DNA of 64,000 bases from Candidatus Protochlamydia amoebophila UWE25 (GTDB taxonomy: Bacteria; Chlamydiota; Chlamydiia; Chlamydiales; Parachlamydiaceae): assembly GCF_000011565.2 (NCBI RefSeq), contig NC_005861.2, positions 1,054,001 through 1,118,000 of the forward strand, written 5' to 3'. Of this stretch, positions 32,042 through 41,259 are shown piece after piece. Numbering within the stretch: the stretch's first letter is position 1; every line of letters starts with the position of its first letter. A model generated the notes under the pieces. It made no database searches. It saw only the letters and a list, made by a program, of their open reading frames with translations, and was not told the origin of the DNA. The translations under genes were made by a program, and so were the position numbers.

Positions 32042-32187
32042 CATTGTAATAAAGAATTAACATTCTCTTATTTACAGGCGAAAGTTGATTCAAAAATGCT
32101 GTAAAAAATAACAATTGAAAACTTAACCCTGAGATAAGTATTCTAGCAGTTAAGTAATTTTTATTGATTTTAATTGCATTGAATCTT

Positions 32188-34983
32188 ATGGCACAAAAGC
32201 CCTCTTTTCATTCTTGTCAATTATGTGTCTCTTTAATTGATCTTACCTGCGATGCGTTTATCTATCAAATTCAACAACTTCCTTCGCAAGTGGACTTAAT
32301 TGAAATTCGATTAGATAAGCTGTTAAAAATTGATTTTGCAGAATTAGATAGATTAAAAGAGATAGCTCATCGTCCTTTAATTTGGACACTTCGAAAAAAA
32401 TCACAAGGAGGAAATTTTTTAGGAAATATTCAAAAACAGTTTTTAATCTTTAAAGAGTTAGCTAAAAGACAGCCTGACTTTGTCGATATAGAAGCGGATA
32501 TTCCTTTAGAATGGCTTCAAGAGCTTCAAAAAATTTCTCCTCAGACACAGTGGATTATTTCTTGGCACGAAGTGAAGGAGACACCTCATCTAAAAACCTG
32601 CTTAGATCAATTATATGCCTTGCCTGGAAATTATTATAAATTAGCTTGCTATACCCATTCTATCATTGATTCTCTCAAACTTCTTGAAATGGCTCAGCAA
32701 GAAAATAAACATTCGAGGCGCCTGTGTACAATCGGCCTCGGAATGAAGGGGCAGTGTACGCGAATTTTAGCTCCAGTAACGGGTCAACCATTTACATTTG
32801 CTTCTTTAAAAGAAGGCTTAGAATCTGCCCCTGGACAGATTTCATTTCAAACGCTTTTTCAAACTTATCGCTTTAAAAAACTTAGCCAGCAAACGGAAAT
32901 TTTTGGTTTAATTGGACATCCAATCGATAAAAGTTTGAGTCATTTGACCCATAATGCTGTTTTAGATCATTTAAATCAGAATGCTGTTTATATTAAATTT
33001 GATGTCGAAGAGACAGAATTGGAATTGTTTTTTCAGCATATCCAACGTTTTTCTGTTCGTGGATTTAGCGTGACAATGCCTCATAAAGAACGAGTAAAAA
33101 AAATTCTTGCTTTGAATATGGATGATGAGAGTCATTTAGCTTGTAACACTCTTTTGTTCAGCTCTTCAATAATTAACGGAACTAATACAGATGGAATCGG
33201 AGCTTTAAAAGCACTAAAAGTCGAAGACTTAAAAGATAAGAAATTGATTTTACTTGGAGCAGGAGGAACCTCCCAGGCAATTGCTTATGAAGCAAAAAAA
33301 AGAGGAGCGGAAGTTACGATTTTAAATCGCACAGTTTTACGTGCTAAAGATGTTGCTGAAAAGATTCAGGTAAAGTGGGGAGGCTTTGAACAACTTAAAG
33401 AGGCTAAAAAAAATGAATGTGATATTCTAATTCAGACGACTTCTGTGGGGATGTCACCTCATGTGGATGCACTAGTTGTTTCGGCTGACTGGATTCCCCA
33501 ACAAATTACTGCTTTAGACGTGATTTCACACCCTTTCGAGACTCTTTTTTTGCAAAAAGCGCGTTTAAAAGGTTGCGAAATTCATCACGGGATCGAACTT
33601 TTTATCCATCAAGCTGCCTTTCAATTTGGTTTTTGGTTTAATAAACAGTTCGATCAAAAACTTATTGAACAAACAATACGAGAGGCACTTCCAATGCCAT
33701 TTAATCAAAAAAAAGTTGCTGTTCAAAAAAGCGCTTTAGCGGGAGAAATTTCTTTACCTCCCTCAAAGTCTCATTCAATTAGAGCTATTTTATTAGGGGC
33801 AATGACTCAAGGCATTTCACGTGTTAAAAATTTATTAGATTCTCCCGATGTGGAACATGCTAAGTTGGCGGCTATAGCATTAGGAGCTAAAATTGAACAG
33901 GTTCAAGATGAGTATTTAATTTCAGGTGTTGCTGGCCAACCTAAAACCCCTTCAGGGATAATTGATGTTGGAAATTCAGGTCAAGTTCTAAGATTTGCGG
34001 GGGCATTTGCAGCCTTAAATCATGGATATACTGTCATCACGGGCGATCATTCAATTTGTTCTAACCGTCCAGCACAACCACTTTTAGATGGGCTAAGATG
34101 TTTGGGAGCTTTTGCCAAATCAACAAGAGAGAATGGGTACGCCCCTTTAATTATCAAAGGACCTATTTATGAAGGAACAGCAGAATTAGAAGGACAGGAT
34201 TCGCAACCCGTCTCCGCTCTATTGATGGCATCAGCATTTATTCATGGCACAACAGAAATTTTCGTTAAATATCCAGGTGAAAAACCTTGGATTGACCTCA
34301 CTCTTCACTGGTTGAACCGTCTAGGAGTTTCTTATATTAATCAAAACTATGAATACTTTAAGATTGAAGGCATTCAACAAAGACCTCATTTTGAGGTAAA
34401 TATTCCAGGCGATTTGAGTGCTGCCGCCTTTCCTGTAGCAGCAGCTATTTTAACTCAATCAAAAATCACTTTGTATAACGTTGATATGAGTGATGTACAA
34501 GGAGATAAACAAGTAATCCATGTTCTCCAAGAAATGGGAGCTGATATTCAAATTGATCAGGCAAGTCACACGTTAACAGTTTTACCAGGGGCTTTATTGA
34601 AGGGAACAACTATCGACGTCAACCCCTTTATTGATGCTGTTCCTATTTTAGCTGTTCTTGCTTGTTTTGCAAAAGGGGAGACCCATTTAATCAATGCAGC
34701 AATTGCTCGACAAAAAGAAAGTAATCGATTGAGCTGTATCACTATTGAGTTAAAAAAAATGGGGGCGCAAATTATGGAAACAGATGATGGGTTACTGATT
34801 CGTAACTCTAACTTGCGAGGGGCTATTGTTGAGAGTTATGATGATCATCGTCTAGCAATGGCTTTAATCGTAGCTGGGCTGGCTAGCGAGGGCATTACTG
34901 AAGTGAAAGGGATTGATTGCATCAAAAAGAGTTTTCCCAACTTTATTCAAGATTTAAAAAAACTTGGGGCTCGGTTTACATGA
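32188..34983 (+). CDS. aroDEA: AroD-AroE-AroA triple fusion (3-dehydroquinate dehydratase / shikimate dehydrogenase / EPSP synthase)
   Basis: The 931-residue frame joins three shikimate enzymes. Residues about 10-215 are type I dehydroquinate dehydratase (LIEIRLDKL, ISWHEV, Lys in YYKLACYT). Residues about 228-490 are shikimate dehydrogenase (IGHPIDKSLSHLTHN, VTMPHKE, NADP loop LLGAGGTSQAIAYEA). Residues about 505-925 are EPSP synthase (LPPSKSHSIRAILLGA, GNSGQVLRFAG, RQKESNRL, DDHRLAMAL). All key motifs are present. Chlamydia fuses aroD and aroE only, with aroA separate. ATG 32188 is used; a TTG eight codons earlier is unlikely. It overlaps aroK by four bases. Confidence 0.93.
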   Translation: MAQKPSFHSCQLCVSLIDLTCDAFIYQIQQLPSQVDLIEIRLDKLLKIDFAELDRLKEIAHRPLIWTLRKKSQGGNFLGNIQKQFLIFKELAKRQPDFVDIEADIPLEWLQELQKISPQTQWIISWHEVKETPHLKTCLDQLYALPGNYYKLACYTHSIIDSLKLLEMAQQENKHSRRLCTIGLGMKGQCTRILAPVTGQPFTFASLKEGLESAPGQISFQTLFQTYRFKKLSQQTEIFGLIGHPIDKSLSHLTHNAVLDHLNQNAVYIKFDVEETELELFFQHIQRFSVRGFSVTMPHKERVKKILALNMDDESHLACNTLLFSSSIINGTNTDGIGALKALKVEDLKDKKLILLGAGGTSQAIAYEAKKRGAEVTILNRTVLRAKDVAEKIQVKWGGFEQLKEAKKNECDILIQTTSVGMSPHVDALVVSADWIPQQITALDVISHPFETLFLQKARLKGCEIHHGIELFIHQAAFQFGFWFNKQFDQKLIEQTIREALPMPFNQKKVAVQKSALAGEISLPPSKSHSIRAILLGAMTQGISRVKNLLDSPDVEHAKLAAIALGAKIEQVQDEYLISGVAGQPKTPSGIIDVGNSGQVLRFAGAFAALNHGYTVITGDHSICSNRPAQPLLDGLRCLGAFAKSTRENGYAPLIIKGPIYEGTAELEGQDSQPVSALLMASAFIHGTTEIFVKYPGEKPWIDLTLHWLNRLGVSYINQNYEYFKIEGIQQRPHFEVNIPGDLSAAAFPVAAAILTQSKITLYNVDMSDVQGDKQVIHVLQEMGADIQIDQASHTLTVLPGALLKGTTIDVNPFIDAVPILAVLACFAKGETHLINAAIARQKESNRLSCITIELKKMGAQIMETDDGLLIRNSNLRGAIVESYDDHRLAMALIVAGLASEGITEVKGIDCIKKSFPNFIQDLKKLGARFT

Positions 34984-36918: not shown

Positions 36919-37674
36919 ATGAAAAAAAATCCTTCTTTGTATTTTATTTTATTTTTAAGCTTATTTTGCTGTGGACAAATGATTTCGGCAGCTACATTAC
37001 ATACAATTTTAGTGGCTGACACGATTCATGACATCAATTCCATTACGGTCCCAGATTTGGCAAGGTGGCAAAAAGAACTGCAGATGATTGCTCAATCTAC
37101 GCATATGATTTTAAAAGAGATAACTTTTGAAGGGAAACGTTTCCGCAAACAACTCATTGTTGATTATTTAAAAAATTTTTCCGTTAATCATGACGACGCC
37201 GTAGTGTTCATTTTCTCTGGACATGGTTATCGAACGCGAGACAAAAAATCACCTTGGCCTTTTTTAATATTTGAGCTTGATAAGCATGGAATGGATTTAA
37301 AATGGATTGACGAAATTATTCGGTCTAAAAAACCCCGTTTTTCTTTAGTTTTAGGGGATTGTTGCAACAATTACATTGAAAAAGGCTTTTTAGGTGAGAA
37401 TAAAAATATCTTTGTCAATTTACGTTTAGTAGAAACAGATCCTTCTGGTTACAACCAGTTATTTTGCCGAGCAAAAGGGCATATTATTGTTTGTAGCTGC
37501 AGTCCAGGAAATTTCTCTTACGGATCTCCTTTTGGAGGATTATATTCACAGTGTTTTCTCGTTAGCTTAAACAGAGAAATATCTCAAAAATTTCCTAGTT
37601 GGAAAAAAGTTTTAGAAAGAGCCAATGGTTACATTCAACAAGTGCAAATACCTGTTTGTGAAATCAACCATTGA
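36919..37674 (+). CDS. secreted caspase-like (clan CD) protein
   Basis: The 251-residue product has a signal peptide (LYFILFLSLFCCGQMISAA, cleavage near residue 25). It then has a caspase/metacaspase-like core: strand DDAVVFIFSGHGYR with His 102, and strand FSLVLGDCCNN with Cys 148, the positions of the His-Cys dyad in peptidase C14. The distance of about 46 residues between them is as in the family. A later segment VCSCSPGNFSYGSPFGG may shape the substrate pocket. It would act outside the cytosol, possibly on host proteins. It precedes a second secreted protein by 51 bases. Confidence 0.7.
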   Translation: MKKNPSLYFILFLSLFCCGQMISAATLHTILVADTIHDINSITVPDLARWQKELQMIAQSTHMILKEITFEGKRFRKQLIVDYLKNFSVNHDDAVVFIFSGHGYRTRDKKSPWPFLIFELDKHGMDLKWIDEIIRSKKPRFSLVLGDCCNNYIEKGFLGENKNIFVNLRLVETDPSGYNQLFCRAKGHIIVCSCSPGNFSYGSPFGGLYSQCFLVSLNREISQKFPSWKKVLERANGYIQQVQIPVCEINH

Positions 37675-37725: not shown

Positions 37726-38427
37726 ATGCGAAATACCACAAACTTTTTTTACAAAATTTGCTTTTTTGCCCTACTGTTTTCTGCAACTGCGATTGCTCAA
37801 ACACAAACGATAACAGGATCGAATCGCCTCGAACCTTTAAACCCCATTCCCATAACACCTACTGTTAATCCCACTCTTTCTTCTTTAAAACCCGTTGCTT
37901 CACCTCCAGCTTTAGTTCCTCAGCAAGCCACTTATTTACATCCTGGTATTCTCGTGTTTAGAAATAATACGTGGGAGGGTGGAGATCATCTTCTGAATGT
38001 GTCTAGCAATATCGGTGTTTATGTTTCTATTATCAAACCTGAATCAGATCCTTTAGCTATCTCGGAGGAAAGTTTAAAAAATATCGTTGATCAAATCTTT
38101 AAAAAATTTAACATTAATCCTGTGACTTTAGCTGCTCCCGGGCATCCCCCTTTACCAGCTTTTCAAATTCAAATATTAGCTTATCCGATAGATAAAGGTT
38201 ATGTTGTGACGTGTGAGGGAAGATTATTTGAATCAGTAAGTTTACAACGGTTTGTTTTAGATCCTGCCATGGCATTTCAAGCTATTACTTGGGAAAAGAA
38301 AGGATTGCATGTTGGTCCGACGGATAAAATCATAGAGCAAATCCAAACAAATGTGGCTGAAATTGCTCAGTCATTTGGAGAGAGGTTTGATGCTTTTGAG
38401 CGACGTAAAAAAGATTTGACTCGCTAA
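37726..38427 (+). CDS. secreted protein of unknown function
   Basis: The 233-residue product has a signal peptide (ICFFALLFSATAIAQ, cleavage near residue 24), then a Pro/Thr-rich linker (about residues 35-70) and a folded domain with ILVFRNNTWEGGDHLL, LPAFQIQILAYPIDKGYVV and a charged C-terminus FGERFDAFERRKKDL. No family is recognised. The position 51 bases after the caspase-like gene suggests they are expressed together, but its ribosome site is within a hairpin, so its translation may be separately controlled. Confidence 0.7.
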   Translation: MRNTTNFFYKICFFALLFSATAIAQTQTITGSNRLEPLNPIPITPTVNPTLSSLKPVASPPALVPQQATYLHPGILVFRNNTWEGGDHLLNVSSNIGVYVSIIKPESDPLAISEESLKNIVDQIFKKFNINPVTLAAPGHPPLPAFQIQILAYPIDKGYVVTCEGRLFESVSLQRFVLDPAMAFQAITWEKKGLHVGPTDKIIEQIQTNVAEIAQSFGERFDAFERRKKDLTR

Positions 38428-38542: not shown

Positions 38543-38929
38543 ATGTTTAACCGTCTTCCTTCTGATTTTCCTGAAAGCTTGTTAAAAAGTGGTGTGATTA
38601 CTTTTGCCATTGATGCACTTATTTATGGCAATGCCGAGCAAGCACTAGCTGTTAGTGGCACTGCAGTTGTTGCAACGTTAATTAGTGCACTAACCACTCC
38701 CTTATTTCGCAAAATGTTTGCTGCTGAGCAACATGCAACTGTGACTTGGTACCATTCAGCGGTTCAAATTGCGACAAGCATTGCTTTGAGCCAGGTATTA
38801 ATTAATACTTTTTCTCATTATCGAGTCAATCTATTATCAGGCGCTATTTTAGCCATTGGAATAAGCTTAGCTGTAGATGGTTTCAAAAATCGCAACCTAA
38901 ACCATAATATTTCTGTGATCATGGTTTAA
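38543..38929 (+). CDS. small membrane protein of unknown function
   Basis: The 128-residue product is hydrophobic, with about three to four helices (GVITFAIDALIYG, AVSGTAVVATLISALTTPLF, AVQIATSIALSQVLINTF, LLSGAILAIGISLAVDGF). The short ends are polar. A GAGGTAATT ribosome region precedes the ATG. The bilobed hydrophobic character recalls chlamydial inclusion-membrane proteins, but no secretion signal can be judged by eye. No function is assigned. Confidence 0.6.
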   Translation: MFNRLPSDFPESLLKSGVITFAIDALIYGNAEQALAVSGTAVVATLISALTTPLFRKMFAAEQHATVTWYHSAVQIATSIALSQVLINTFSHYRVNLLSGAILAIGISLAVDGFKNRNLNHNISVIMV

Positions 38930-39288: not shown

Positions 39289-41259
39289 ATGGTCATTTTG
39301 AATATTCCTACTCTAAGTTATAGTTATCTTGTCAATACAATGACCACTTCTGACTATCAATCTCAAGAAATTAGCGATCTTTCTAGAGATGAAGATATCC
39401 CCTTAGGCAATTCTTTGGCAAATATAGAAGAAACTAGTGCACCAACGATTCAAGTTCACGATTTTTCCTCTTCATCTGAAGAACTTCAACTAAGCTTTCA
39501 AGAGGGAACTTCTCTGACTATTTCTCATTCTCAGTTAGCTATGTTAAGGGAAAAATCCCTTTATTTTAAAACTCTTTGGTCAGGAAATTTTCAAGAAACC
39601 CTTCAACATCCTCTGGCTTTGACACAAAAGGAGTTTACGCATCTGCTTAATTGTGTCATGGATGCTAATTTTAAAGTTCCTTTGGAAGAGATCACTTCTT
39701 CCATTCAACTAGCCGATTATTATGAACTAACAGAAGTGGTGAAAAATTTAGAAGAACAGCTGATTGAGGGATACCGAACACAGGAATTTGAACCATTTAG
39801 TTCCACTGAAGAGAGTTTAGTCGCATTAAAAGAACTTTTAAATTTTGCACATCGCTATCAATTAAGTACATTGAAGAACTATTTAGAATTGACCGTTGTG
39901 AGCGCCTTATTAAATCAGACCTCTCAACTGACGGAGTTTGAAAAAATTATAAAGCACTTCTTAAATGAGATAGAAGCATTTAATTTTTCAGACAATGCTT
40001 ATTTAACAGATGCCCATCTTTTAGCATTAAAAGATTGTAAAAATTTAAAAGTACTCCATTTAGAGAAATGTCAGGTTATTACGGACGATGGTTTGGCGCA
40101 TTTGACACCCTTAACGGCTTTGCAGCATTTAGAATTAAGCGATTGCAGGAAACTCACCGATGCAGGATTAGCTCATTTGACACCCTTAACGGCTTTGCAG
40201 CATCTAAATCTAAGCTTTTGCGATAAACTCACCGATGCAGGATTAGCTCATTTGACACCCTTAACGGCTTTGCAGCATCTAAATCTAAGCAGGTGCTATT
40301 ATAAACTCACCGATGCAGGATTAGCTCATTTGACACCCTTAACGGCTTTGCAGCATCTAAATCTAAGCTTTTGCGATAAACTCACCGATGCAGGATTAGT
40401 CCATTTGAAACTCTTAACGGGTTTGCAGCATCTAGATCTAAGAGAATTCTGGGAACTTACCGGTGCAGGATTAGCGCATTTAACAACTTTAACCGCTTTG
40501 CAGCATCTAGATCTGAGTGGATGCGATAAGCTCACTGACGTAGGATTAGCCCATTTAACACCCTTAACGACTTTGCAGCATCTAGATCTGAAAAGGTGTC
40601 GTAATCTCACGAACGCTGGATTAGTCCATTTGAAACTCTTAACGGGTTTGCAGCATCTAAATTTGAGCGAATGCTATCATCTCACCGATGCAGGATTAGC
40701 CCATTTGACACCCTTAACCGCTTTGCAGCATCTAGATCTAAGCCAATGCAGTAAACTCACTGACGATGGATTAGCCCATTTAACACCCTTGACGGCTTTG
40801 CAGCATCTAGATCTAAGCCAATGCAGTAAACTCACTGACGATGGATTAGCCCATTTAACACCCTTGACGGCTTTGCAGCATTTAGTTCTGGCTAGGTGCC
40901 GTAATCTCACGGACGCTGGATTAGCGCATTTGACACCCTTAGAGACTTTACAACATTTAAATTTGAGTGGAGGCTATAAGCTCACGGGTGCTGGATTAGC
41001 GCATTTGAGGCCCTTAGTGGCTTTACAGCATTTAGATTTGAGCTATTGTAATGGGCTCACGGACGCTGGATTAGCGCATTTGACACCCTTAGTGGCTTTA
41101 CAGCATTTAGATTTGAGCTATTGTGATGGGCTCACGGACGCTGGATTAACGCATTTGAGGCCCTTAGTGGCTTTACAGCATTTAGATTTGAGCTATTGTG
41201 ATGGGCTCACGGACGCTGGATTAGCGCATTTTAAATTCTTAGCAGCTATAATACACTAA
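39289..41259 (+). CDS. BTB-LRR protein, candidate host-directed effector
   Basis: The 656-residue product has no signal peptide. Residues about 45-165 resemble a BTB/POZ domain (FQEGTSLTISHSQLAMLREK, SLYFKTLWSGNFQET, EEITSSIQLADYYELTEVV), and a helical linker (BACK-like) follows. From about residue 240 to the end there are 16 leucine-rich repeats of 25 residues with the pattern LTPLTALQHLNLS-C-KLTDAGLAH. BTB proteins recruit substrates to cullin-3 ubiquitin ligases in eukaryotes, and amoeba-associated chlamydiae carry expanded BTB/F-box families thought to be secreted. A role in host ubiquitination is therefore inferred. ATG 39289 is used; ATG 39337 is possible. Confidence 0.85.
   Translation: MVILNIPTLSYSYLVNTMTTSDYQSQEISDLSRDEDIPLGNSLANIEETSAPTIQVHDFSSSSEELQLSFQEGTSLTISHSQLAMLREKSLYFKTLWSGNFQETLQHPLALTQKEFTHLLNCVMDANFKVPLEEITSSIQLADYYELTEVVKNLEEQLIEGYRTQEFEPFSSTEESLVALKELLNFAHRYQLSTLKNYLELTVVSALLNQTSQLTEFEKIIKHFLNEIEAFNFSDNAYLTDAHLLALKDCKNLKVLHLEKCQVITDDGLAHLTPLTALQHLELSDCRKLTDAGLAHLTPLTALQHLNLSFCDKLTDAGLAHLTPLTALQHLNLSRCYYKLTDAGLAHLTPLTALQHLNLSFCDKLTDAGLVHLKLLTGLQHLDLREFWELTGAGLAHLTTLTALQHLDLSGCDKLTDVGLAHLTPLTTLQHLDLKRCRNLTNAGLVHLKLLTGLQHLNLSECYHLTDAGLAHLTPLTALQHLDLSQCSKLTDDGLAHLTPLTALQHLDLSQCSKLTDDGLAHLTPLTALQHLVLARCRNLTDAGLAHLTPLETLQHLNLSGGYKLTGAGLAHLRPLVALQHLDLSYCNGLTDAGLAHLTPLVALQHLDLSYCDGLTDAGLTHLRPLVALQHLDLSYCDGLTDAGLAHFKFLAAIIH
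40090..41240 (+). repeat. 75-base tandem repeats encoding the LRRs
   Basis: About 15-16 units of 75 bases (one of 78) repeat in tandem, each built around gcatttgacacccttaacgg and ctttgcagcatctagat. Units at about 40721-40795 and 40796-40870 are almost identical at the DNA level, and so are those near 41035-41234. Low divergence between neighbouring units shows recent expansion or gene conversion. Confidence 0.9.

What the first reader, a model, noticed from the sequence alone, without database searches (positions are those of the whole stretch)
36919..37674. Secreted caspase-like protein
A signal peptide is followed by the two landmark strands of clan CD cysteine peptidases, SGHG (His 102) and GDCCN (Cys 148), at the proper spacing. 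An exported caspase-like enzyme in an amoeba symbiont could act on host cell-death or signalling proteins, or serve in competition. Next to it are a second exported protein and a BTB-LRR gene.
Basis: partly seen in the sequence, partly recalled or inferred. Interest (0 to 1): 0.55.

Follow-up and report, generated by a model that had tools for sequence, protein, structure and literature searches.

The report
Exported caspase-like peptidase of a chlamydia
This chlamydial gene makes an exported caspase-like protein-cutting enzyme whose relatives, in several kinds of bacteria, are often encoded right behind a small partner protein that has no name yet, so it is probably not an invention of amoeba symbionts.

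Summary
The ORF at 36919-37674 is a real, probably active, exported caspase-fold (clan CD, C14) peptidase. Pfam PF00656 scores 38.3 bits against a cut-off of 21.4. AlphaFold2 gives pLDDT 93.4; the model matches caspase-9, caspase-8 and MALT1 at Z about 19. His102 is conserved in 62 of 70 relatives.

Relatives occur in 33 of 232 Chlamydiota genomes and in spirochaetes, Rhodospirillales, Parabeggiatoa and Bacteroidetes, so the family is not specific to amoeba symbionts.

In many relatives the gene directly follows one for a small, often lipoprotein-like protein of no named family. Searching with the partner alone, 4 of 4 new strong hits lie beside this peptidase; 0 of 6 weak ones do. The window's lineage lacks that partner. 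Its exported neighbour is conserved independently, and the BTB-LRR neighbour is not conserved beside it.

Pocket residues (Asp46, Asp147) suggest cutting after Arg/Lys, as metacaspases and MALT1 do. A host-directed role is possible but unproven.

The parts
36919..37674 (+). Exported C14/caspase-fold peptidase, 251 aa
   Evidence: ORF; Pfam PF00656 38.3 bits; AlphaFold2 pLDDT 93.4; PDB matches; conservation
36919..36993 (+). Signal-peptide-like N-terminus (aa 1-25), likely cut just before the first strand (from about T26); no room for a prodomain between it and the fold
   Evidence: Sequence; strand E26-33 in the model; 61 of 66 full-length chlamydial members have an uncharged hydrophobic stretch in the 32 aa before this strand, against 125 of 447 other ORFs in the same loci on their N-terminal 36 aa. 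A stricter rule gave 40 of 66 chlamydial members and 14 of 17 non-chlamydial ones, against 11 of 42 window ORFs. No SignalP was available
37054..37056 (+). Asp46, which I align with the helix-1 acidic S1 residue (MALT1 Asp365, TbMCA2 Asp95; inferred from motif, not from superposition)
   Evidence: 47 Asp and 7 Asn among the 62 rows with both His and Cys; at least 90% in A2; roles of the MALT1 and TbMCA2 residues in PMC4357240 (passages)
37222..37224 (+). Catalytic His102 (SGHG)
   Evidence: 62 of 70; invariant in A1 and A2
37357..37359 (+). Asp147, two residues before the catalytic Cys; aligned with the Asp of MALT1 'LLDMC' (HMMER alignment)
   Evidence: 58 of 62 rows with an intact dyad
37363..37365 (+). 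Catalytic Cys149 (DCCN; Cys148 is the variable residue before it)
   Evidence: 64 of 71; invariant in A1 and A2; aligned with the Cys of MALT1 'LLDMC'
37726..38427 (+). Second exported protein (233 aa). Follows the peptidase gene in the five orthologous genomes but is conserved independently of it

Best explanation
It is an exported cysteine peptidase of the caspase fold (C14, closer in active site to metacaspases/MALT1 than to Asp-cutting caspases). Sec exports it, and signal peptidase removes the leader right at the first strand of the fold. His102 and Cys149 then cleave substrate proteins, most likely after Arg or Lys, outside the cytoplasm (periplasm, outer membrane or beyond). It belongs to a bacterial family of which one widespread, perhaps ancestral, form is a two-gene unit: a small, often lipoprotein-like partner made just before the peptidase, which I infer holds, restrains or activates the enzyme in the envelope. 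The window's lineage has a solo version. Shown here by computation: export-type N-terminus (simple rule), predicted fold, conserved dyad, family spread, partner linkage in relatives and no partner match in this genome. Inferred: activity, P1 preference, place of action, partner role, which form is ancestral.
For: Pfam and fold. Dyad. Of 69 near-complete rows, 61 keep both His and Cys, 7 have lost both (in one the His column is a gap) and 1 has lost only His; the 7 form one clade in the tree, so this is about one event, not seven. Export-type N-terminus: 61 of 66 against 125 of 447 control ORFs. Spread outside Chlamydiota. Partner: 13 places in 12 of 232 Chlamydiota genomes. Of these, 11 lie directly upstream of a peptidase gene, 1 directly downstream (L085), and the 13th is followed by the start of one at a contig end. 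Also in 13 of 17 non-chlamydial loci L090-L114. In 23 of 28 rows (three pairs of rows are the same locus from two collections) the gap from partner stop to peptidase start is -8 to +16 bases. Test by partner alone: 4 of 4 new strong hits. Pocket: Asp46 and Asp147 with PMC4357240 passages.
Against: No activity is known. The third acidic pocket residue of MALT1 (Glu500) has no counterpart: the column I place there holds Gly 24, Cys 15, Ala 10 or others among 62 rows, so the Arg/Lys preference is only partly supported. The window's own group lacks the partner (no match in G000), so partner-based inference applies to relatives, not directly to this gene. Of 66 chlamydial members without the Tyr change, 23 have no co-directional gene within 120 bases upstream and 8 have some other gene there. 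6 of 6 weak partner hits in the spirochaete search lie in a different locus type without the peptidase. The partner is absent beside L097, L102, L111, L113 and the seven Bacteroidota loci L115-L121. Only 18 of 28 partner rows pass a relaxed lipobox pattern and 6 of 28 a strict one.
Confidence: 0.62

Rival explanations
1. Host-directed effector (not exclusive of the main reading): exported by Sec and then across the outer membrane (as described for chlamydial CPAF, recalled), it cleaves amoeba proteins, e.g. cell-death or trafficking factors.
For: Lineage of intracellular bacteria; multi-copy sets in some Chlamydiota (11 matches each in G035 and G038), as for effector families; patchy presence (33 of 232 genomes); within the genus 2 of 4 genomes (G000, G099) carry the orthologue (G101 is an 88% complete draft); two secretin-like matches in the genome.
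Against: Same family in lineages that are not chlamydial; both matches to the type II secretin model lie below its cut-off; no match in 199 of 232 Chlamydiota genomes.
Confidence: 0.3
2. Envelope quality-control or self-directed peptidase: processes the bacterium's own exported proteins or acts in envelope stress, kept in check by the small partner where present.
For: A lipoprotein-type Cys is near-invariant in the 16-row partner set A4 and the partner is co-encoded in three phyla, so partner and enzyme would meet in the envelope; the weak partner relatives lie in a conserved locus of exported-looking proteins.
Against: Members without a partner are common (23 none and 8 other gene of 66); the orthologue is missing in half of the genus as sampled; large multi-copy sets are unusual for housekeeping.
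Confidence: 0.4
3. Antagonism or defence factor: the peptidase is a toxin-like component and the small partner its immunity or inhibitor protein.
For: Tight two-gene unit with overlapping or abutting stop and start; caspase-like domains occur as toxins and releasing peptidases in polymorphic toxins (PMC3482391, passages seen); different upstream partner types, including pseudo-peptidases.
Against: Only a weak hit to the PADLOC caspase model (E 0.016); no second domain in the window protein; members without the putative immunity protein are common.
Confidence: 0.2
4. Inactive scaffold (pseudo-peptidase).
For: Pseudo-members exist in the family (7 rows with Tyr in place of Cys) and pseudo-orthocaspases are known (PMC6426788, passages seen).
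Against: The window protein keeps His102, Cys149 and the other residues invariant among the aligned members.
Confidence: 0.05

Closest known systems
Metacaspases / orthocaspases (Pfam PF00656, C14B type)
   Same: Fold, His-Cys dyad, DxC motif with an acidic residue before the Cys, helix-1 Asp
   Different: Export-type leader; DxCN instead of the metacaspase DSCH motif (recalled); only weak sequence matches to solved metacaspases (best E 3.4e-5, over one 39-residue stretch); often paired with an unnamed small partner
MALT1 paracaspase
   Same: Among the best structure matches (Z 19.5, rmsd 2.7, 182 residues, 3uo8_B); Asp365 and Asp462 counterparts present by alignment
   Different: No counterpart of Glu500 at the column aligned by me; about 11% identity; none of MALT1's other domains; export-type leader
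Animal caspases (C14A)
   Same: Fold (caspase-9 3v3k_C Z 19.6, rmsd 3.1, 191 residues)
   Different: Asp instead of the caspase pocket Gln near the Cys; Gly202, not Arg, at the aligned L5 position; no large prodomain
Prokaryotic caspase homologues with N-terminal helix (PMC3501461, passages and one section seen)
   Same: Survey of 671 proteins notes 46 with a single N-terminal helix that may be a signal peptide; operons are common
   Different: Main text has no 'chlamydia'; the section read on operons does not describe this small partner
EACC1-associated caspases (NCBIfam NF047832)
   Same: Weak match, 18 bits
   Different: Far below the 140-bit cut-off

Membership tests
Peptidase C14 (Pfam PF00656) | Score over the curated cut-off | tested here: met
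   38.3 against 21.4 bits
Peptidase C14 (Pfam PF00656) | Caspase fold | tested here: met
   Model pLDDT 93.4; Z about 19 to caspases and MALT1
Peptidase C14 (Pfam PF00656) | Conserved His then Cys dyad | tested here: met
   His102 62 of 70, Cys149 64 of 71
Peptidase C14 (Pfam PF00656) | Cysteine peptidase activity | not testable with these tools
   Needs purified protein
Metacaspase/orthocaspase type (C14B) | Acidic S1 pocket (helix-1 Asp and Asp of DxC) | tested here: met
   Asp46 and Asp147 by sequence alignment with roles from PMC4357240; Asp46 placed by motif only; no structure-based residue map was available
Metacaspase/orthocaspase type (C14B) | Cleaves after Arg/Lys | not testable with these tools
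   No assay
Caspase proper (C14A) | Basic S1 pocket (Arg, Gln, Arg; caspase-7 Arg87, Gln184, Arg233 in PMC4357240) | tested here: not met
   Asp147 at the Gln position and Gly202 at the second Arg position by alignment; first Arg position not mapped
EACC1-associated caspase (NF047832) | Score over the cut-off of 140 bits | tested here: not met
   18 bits
PADLOC caspase defence model PDLC02987 | Clear profile match | tested here: inconclusive
   E 0.016, 12.5 bits, residues 65-151; the library gives no cut-off
Host-delivered chlamydial protease (CPAF-like use) | Found in the host cytosol in infection | not testable with these tools
   Needs infected-cell fractionation

The most novel reading that the evidence does not exclude
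The exported caspase-like peptidase is the enzyme half of an undescribed, cross-phylum envelope system in which a small, often lipoprotein-like partner, translated just before it, controls it. Chlamydiota have kept the enzyme, swapped the partner (for an unrelated exported-looking protein in one lineage, for a pseudo-caspase in another, as c-FLIP pairs with caspase-8), or, as in the window, dropped it, and in some lineages multiplied the enzyme for use at the host interface.
Probability: 0.35. Interest if true: 0.7.

Novelty: new variant of a known kind. Interest (0 to 1): 0.5.

Why it matters
Prokaryotic caspase homologues are numerous, but their partners, substrates and place of action are mostly unknown. 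This family has an export-type leader and, in three phyla, comes with a tightly linked partner of no named family. That gives a small, expressible pair on which inhibition, activation and substrate choice can be tested directly. In Chlamydiota it adds a patchy, sometimes multi-copy peptidase family that I did not find in the chlamydial genome papers I checked (0 occurrences of 'caspase' in the main texts of PMC4209131, PMC9816063 and PMC8242063).

Tried and rejected
Rejected: Cys148 as nucleophile (variable column). Rejected: the exported neighbour 37726-38427 as a dedicated partner. It is found in 46 of 232 Chlamydiota genomes at E up to 0.01, 6 of these only at E 0.001 to 0.006. In the nine loci fetched around it from genomes without the orthologue no peptidase is found (L134-L142, hmmsearch); in seven of the nine (L135-L140, L142) it directly follows the homologue of the 31439-32041 gene. 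Rejected: the BTB-LRR gene as part of a unit (one 30% match among the 55 loci).

Led nowhere: single-sequence PDB search (best E 2.4, coagulation factor X, chance). The first genome-contig scan, with the single protein, found nothing; the second, allowed one used an alignment. Pfam and NCBIfam give no name to the partner (only scattered weak hits). The partner model (pLDDT 84.4) best matches a putative lipoprotein of unknown role, 4r7r (Z 9.2, rmsd 3.4, 112 residues), which tells no function. Among the listed titles and abstract starts of my paper searches (one search listed none; some searches listed only part of what they found) I saw none on this pair; one search was for MALT1. The strict signal-peptide rule discriminated less well and was replaced by a simpler one; both are reported. 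A spirochaete-wide search with the peptidase profile, meant as the counterpart of the partner search, failed and was not repeated, so how many spirochaete peptidases lack the partner is not known.

Rows dropped: two ORFs that came in through a fused protein (before); four fragments in the dyad table. Two short places in G038 (C85, C79) were not fetched.

Full report
What is there. The ORF 36919-37674 (+, 251 aa) starts with a basic, then hydrophobic stretch ending in SAA just before the first strand of the fold. It scores 38.3 bits against Pfam Peptidase_C14 (cut-off 21.4). PF00656 matches once in the whole genome of 2,438,912 bases. A protein search of 232 Chlamydiota genomes found relatives in 33. 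Its best five places are the window itself and one copy each in G099, G091, G102 and G077 (46-58% identity). I fetched all places listed there but two short ones in G038 and read out 73 members.

Active site. In an alignment of 36 sequences from Chlamydiota, Spirochaetota, Pseudomonadota and Bacteroidota, H102, G103, R105, P114, C149, N150, G206 and W228 are invariant. In a table of 69 near-complete rows, 61 keep both dyad residues, 7 have lost both (Cys to Tyr; in one of them the His column is a gap) and 1 has lost only His. The seven form one clade (99/95, where long branches are flagged), so the Fisher value given (7e-9) overstates the independence of the losses. The window protein keeps everything.

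Fold. AlphaFold2 on the 36-row alignment gives pLDDT 93.4 and pTM 0.89. Foldseek's best matches are MALT1 and caspase-9 (E about 1e-8 to 3e-8). VIA-align gives Z 19.6 (rmsd 3.1, 191 residues) to caspase-9 3v3k_C and Z 19.5 (rmsd 2.7, 182 residues) to MALT1 3uo8_B, tied. By sequence profile only short stretches of metacaspases and part of MALT1 are seen (best E 3.4e-5 and 0.0056).

Specificity. PMC4357240 (passages seen) gives the P1 pocket of MALT1 as Asp365, Asp462 and Glu500, the proposed pocket of T. brucei metacaspase-2 as Cys92, Asp95, Ser156 and Asp211, and the pocket of caspases as Arg, Gln, Arg. HMMER aligns Asp147 and Cys149 with the Asp and Cys of MALT1 'LLDMC'. Asp46 I place at MALT1 Asp365 by motif, not by superposition. 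Asp46 is Asp in 47 and Asn in 7 of the 62 rows with both His and Cys; Asp147 in 58 of 62. The column I align with Glu500 is Gly, Cys, Ala or other. So an Arg/Lys preference is favoured, not shown.

Export. 61 of 66 full-length chlamydial members have an uncharged hydrophobic stretch in the 32 residues ahead of the first strand, against 125 of 447 other ORFs of at least 150 aa in the same loci measured on their N-terminal 36 residues (the two measures differ slightly in placement, and membrane proteins count in the control). A stricter rule gave 40 of 66 chlamydial and 14 of 17 non-chlamydial members, against 11 of 42 window ORFs. Both are crude rules, not SignalP. The genome has two matches to the type II secretin model, both below its cut-off (316.6 and 188.2 against 351.35 bits).

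Spread beyond chlamydiae. A scan of genome contigs with a 22-row alignment gave 35 loci, among them spirochaetes, Rhodospirillales, Candidatus Parabeggiatoa and Bacteroidetes. Many of the non-chlamydial proteins are longer at the C-terminus; of the eight scanned, one has a PAN and one a laminin-G-like domain there. The tree puts the window in a group of five with full support; the deeper order, including whether the chlamydial rows are one clade, is not resolved.

The partner. All-against-all comparison of neighbours showed a small protein (135-179 aa) next to the peptidase gene in 12 chlamydial loci. Its profile finds 13 places in 12 of 232 Chlamydiota genomes, none in the window's. Eleven lie directly upstream of a peptidase gene and one just downstream (L085). 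The thirteenth (G083) is near a contig end and is followed by the first residues of a peptidase gene with an in-frame stop. The same profile finds relatives in 13 of the 17 non-chlamydial loci L090-L114 (not in L097, L102, L111, L113) and none at a convincing score in the seven Bacteroidota loci L115-L121 (best E 0.0086). In 23 of 28 rows the gap from the partner's stop to the peptidase's start is -8 to +16 bases; three pairs of these rows are one locus seen in two collections (L037/L089, L040/L094, L045/L110). Of the other five, L096, L100 and L071 show larger overlaps that may come from start codons set too far upstream, L114 has a gap of 488, and in L085 the partner lies downstream. In the 14 genomes that hold 16 of these non-chlamydial loci, the 16-row partner profile gave 16 matches: one strong match in each of 12 genomes, two in the Parabeggiatoa genome, none in one, and two weak ones. 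Because those loci were fetched through the peptidase, I searched 296 genomes of the phylum of L103's genome with the partner alone. Of 20 places, 10 were known. Four new ones were strong (E 7.3e-37 or better) and all four have the peptidase directly downstream (gaps 1, 18, -4, 13). Six were weak (E 2e-7 to 4e-6), none has it in the fetched stretch, and all six sit in another conserved set of exported-looking proteins. A lipoprotein-type Cys is near-invariant in the 16-row set A4 (13 of them non-chlamydial), but over 28 rows only 18 pass a relaxed lipobox pattern and 6 a strict one, and several chlamydial partners lack it. No Pfam or NCBIfam family covers it. Its model (pLDDT 84.4) resembles a putative lipoprotein, 4r7r (Z 9.2).

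Other upstream partners. Of 66 chlamydial members without the Cys-to-Tyr change, the directly upstream co-directional gene (within 120 bases) is the small partner in 11, another family member in 8, an unrelated exported-looking protein in 7 (all in G035, and fused to a peptidase in one gene there), a pseudo-member in 4 (three with a 4-base overlap; the fourth precedes a fragment), another gene in 8, and none in 23; 5 lie at contig ends. The window and its four orthologues are among the 23.

The window's own surroundings. The exported protein 37726-38427 follows the peptidase gene in all five orthologous genomes, but it is a protein of its own, in 46 of 232 genomes at E up to 0.01. In nine fetched loci from genomes without the orthologue, no peptidase is found beside it. 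The peptidase thus appears to have come into, or been lost from, a site next to it. In the same genus only G000 and G099 have the orthologue, while the search in G100 and in the draft G101 gave only a distant paralogue.

What is known. Prokaryotic caspase homologues, some with an N-terminal helix that may be a signal peptide, were surveyed in PMC3501461 (passages and the operon section seen; no 'chlamydia' in its main text). Pseudo-orthocaspases are described in PMC6426788 (passages seen; no 'chlamydi'), and caspase-like domains in polymorphic toxins in PMC3482391 (passages seen). Three chlamydial genome papers have no 'caspase' in their main text. BTB-box families in Parachlamydiaceae are described in PMC4209131 (passages seen). 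None of the titles or abstract starts listed by my paper searches (empty) pointed to the peptidase-partner pair; the library lacks most subscription journals.

Judgement. It is a new variant of a known kind: an exported C14 peptidase family with an unnamed, tightly linked small partner in three phyla, here in a solo form.

Noticed in passing
window 32164-34983: One 939-aa ORF appears to join shikimate-pathway enzymes (dehydroquinase/shikimate dehydrogenase-like, then EPSP synthase-like; names recalled from the sequence, no family search run), next to aroL- and aroC-like genes; a similar long ORF is in G099 (936 aa, 60%).
   Followed up: no
window 39289-41259: BTB plus leucine-rich-repeat protein (656 aa; BTB 21.9 bits, many LRR hits), not conserved beside the peptidase in relatives; kind described for Parachlamydiaceae in PMC4209131 (passages).
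   Followed up: partly
window 38543-38929: 128-aa membrane-type protein, diverged in relatives' loci, with two matches each in L032 and L033.
   Followed up: no
L064:4594-6278, L067:3405-5020, L063:460-2195: A pseudo-member (His lost, Cys to Tyr) is encoded upstream of an intact member with a 4-base overlap in three loci of G034 and G038.
   Followed up: partly
L065, L066, L068, L073-L076 (G035): In one chlamydial genome an unrelated exported-looking protein (mostly 286-363 aa) sits directly upstream of a peptidase gene in seven places and is fused to a peptidase in one gene (L066:4405-6246).
   Followed up: partly
L159-L164: Distant relatives of the small partner sit in a conserved spirochaete locus between a large outer-membrane-looking protein and another exported-looking protein (my reading of the sequences), without the peptidase.
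   Followed up: partly
L040:7024-11835 (G059): Five peptidase genes and one partner gene in a row in one chlamydial genome.
   Followed up: no
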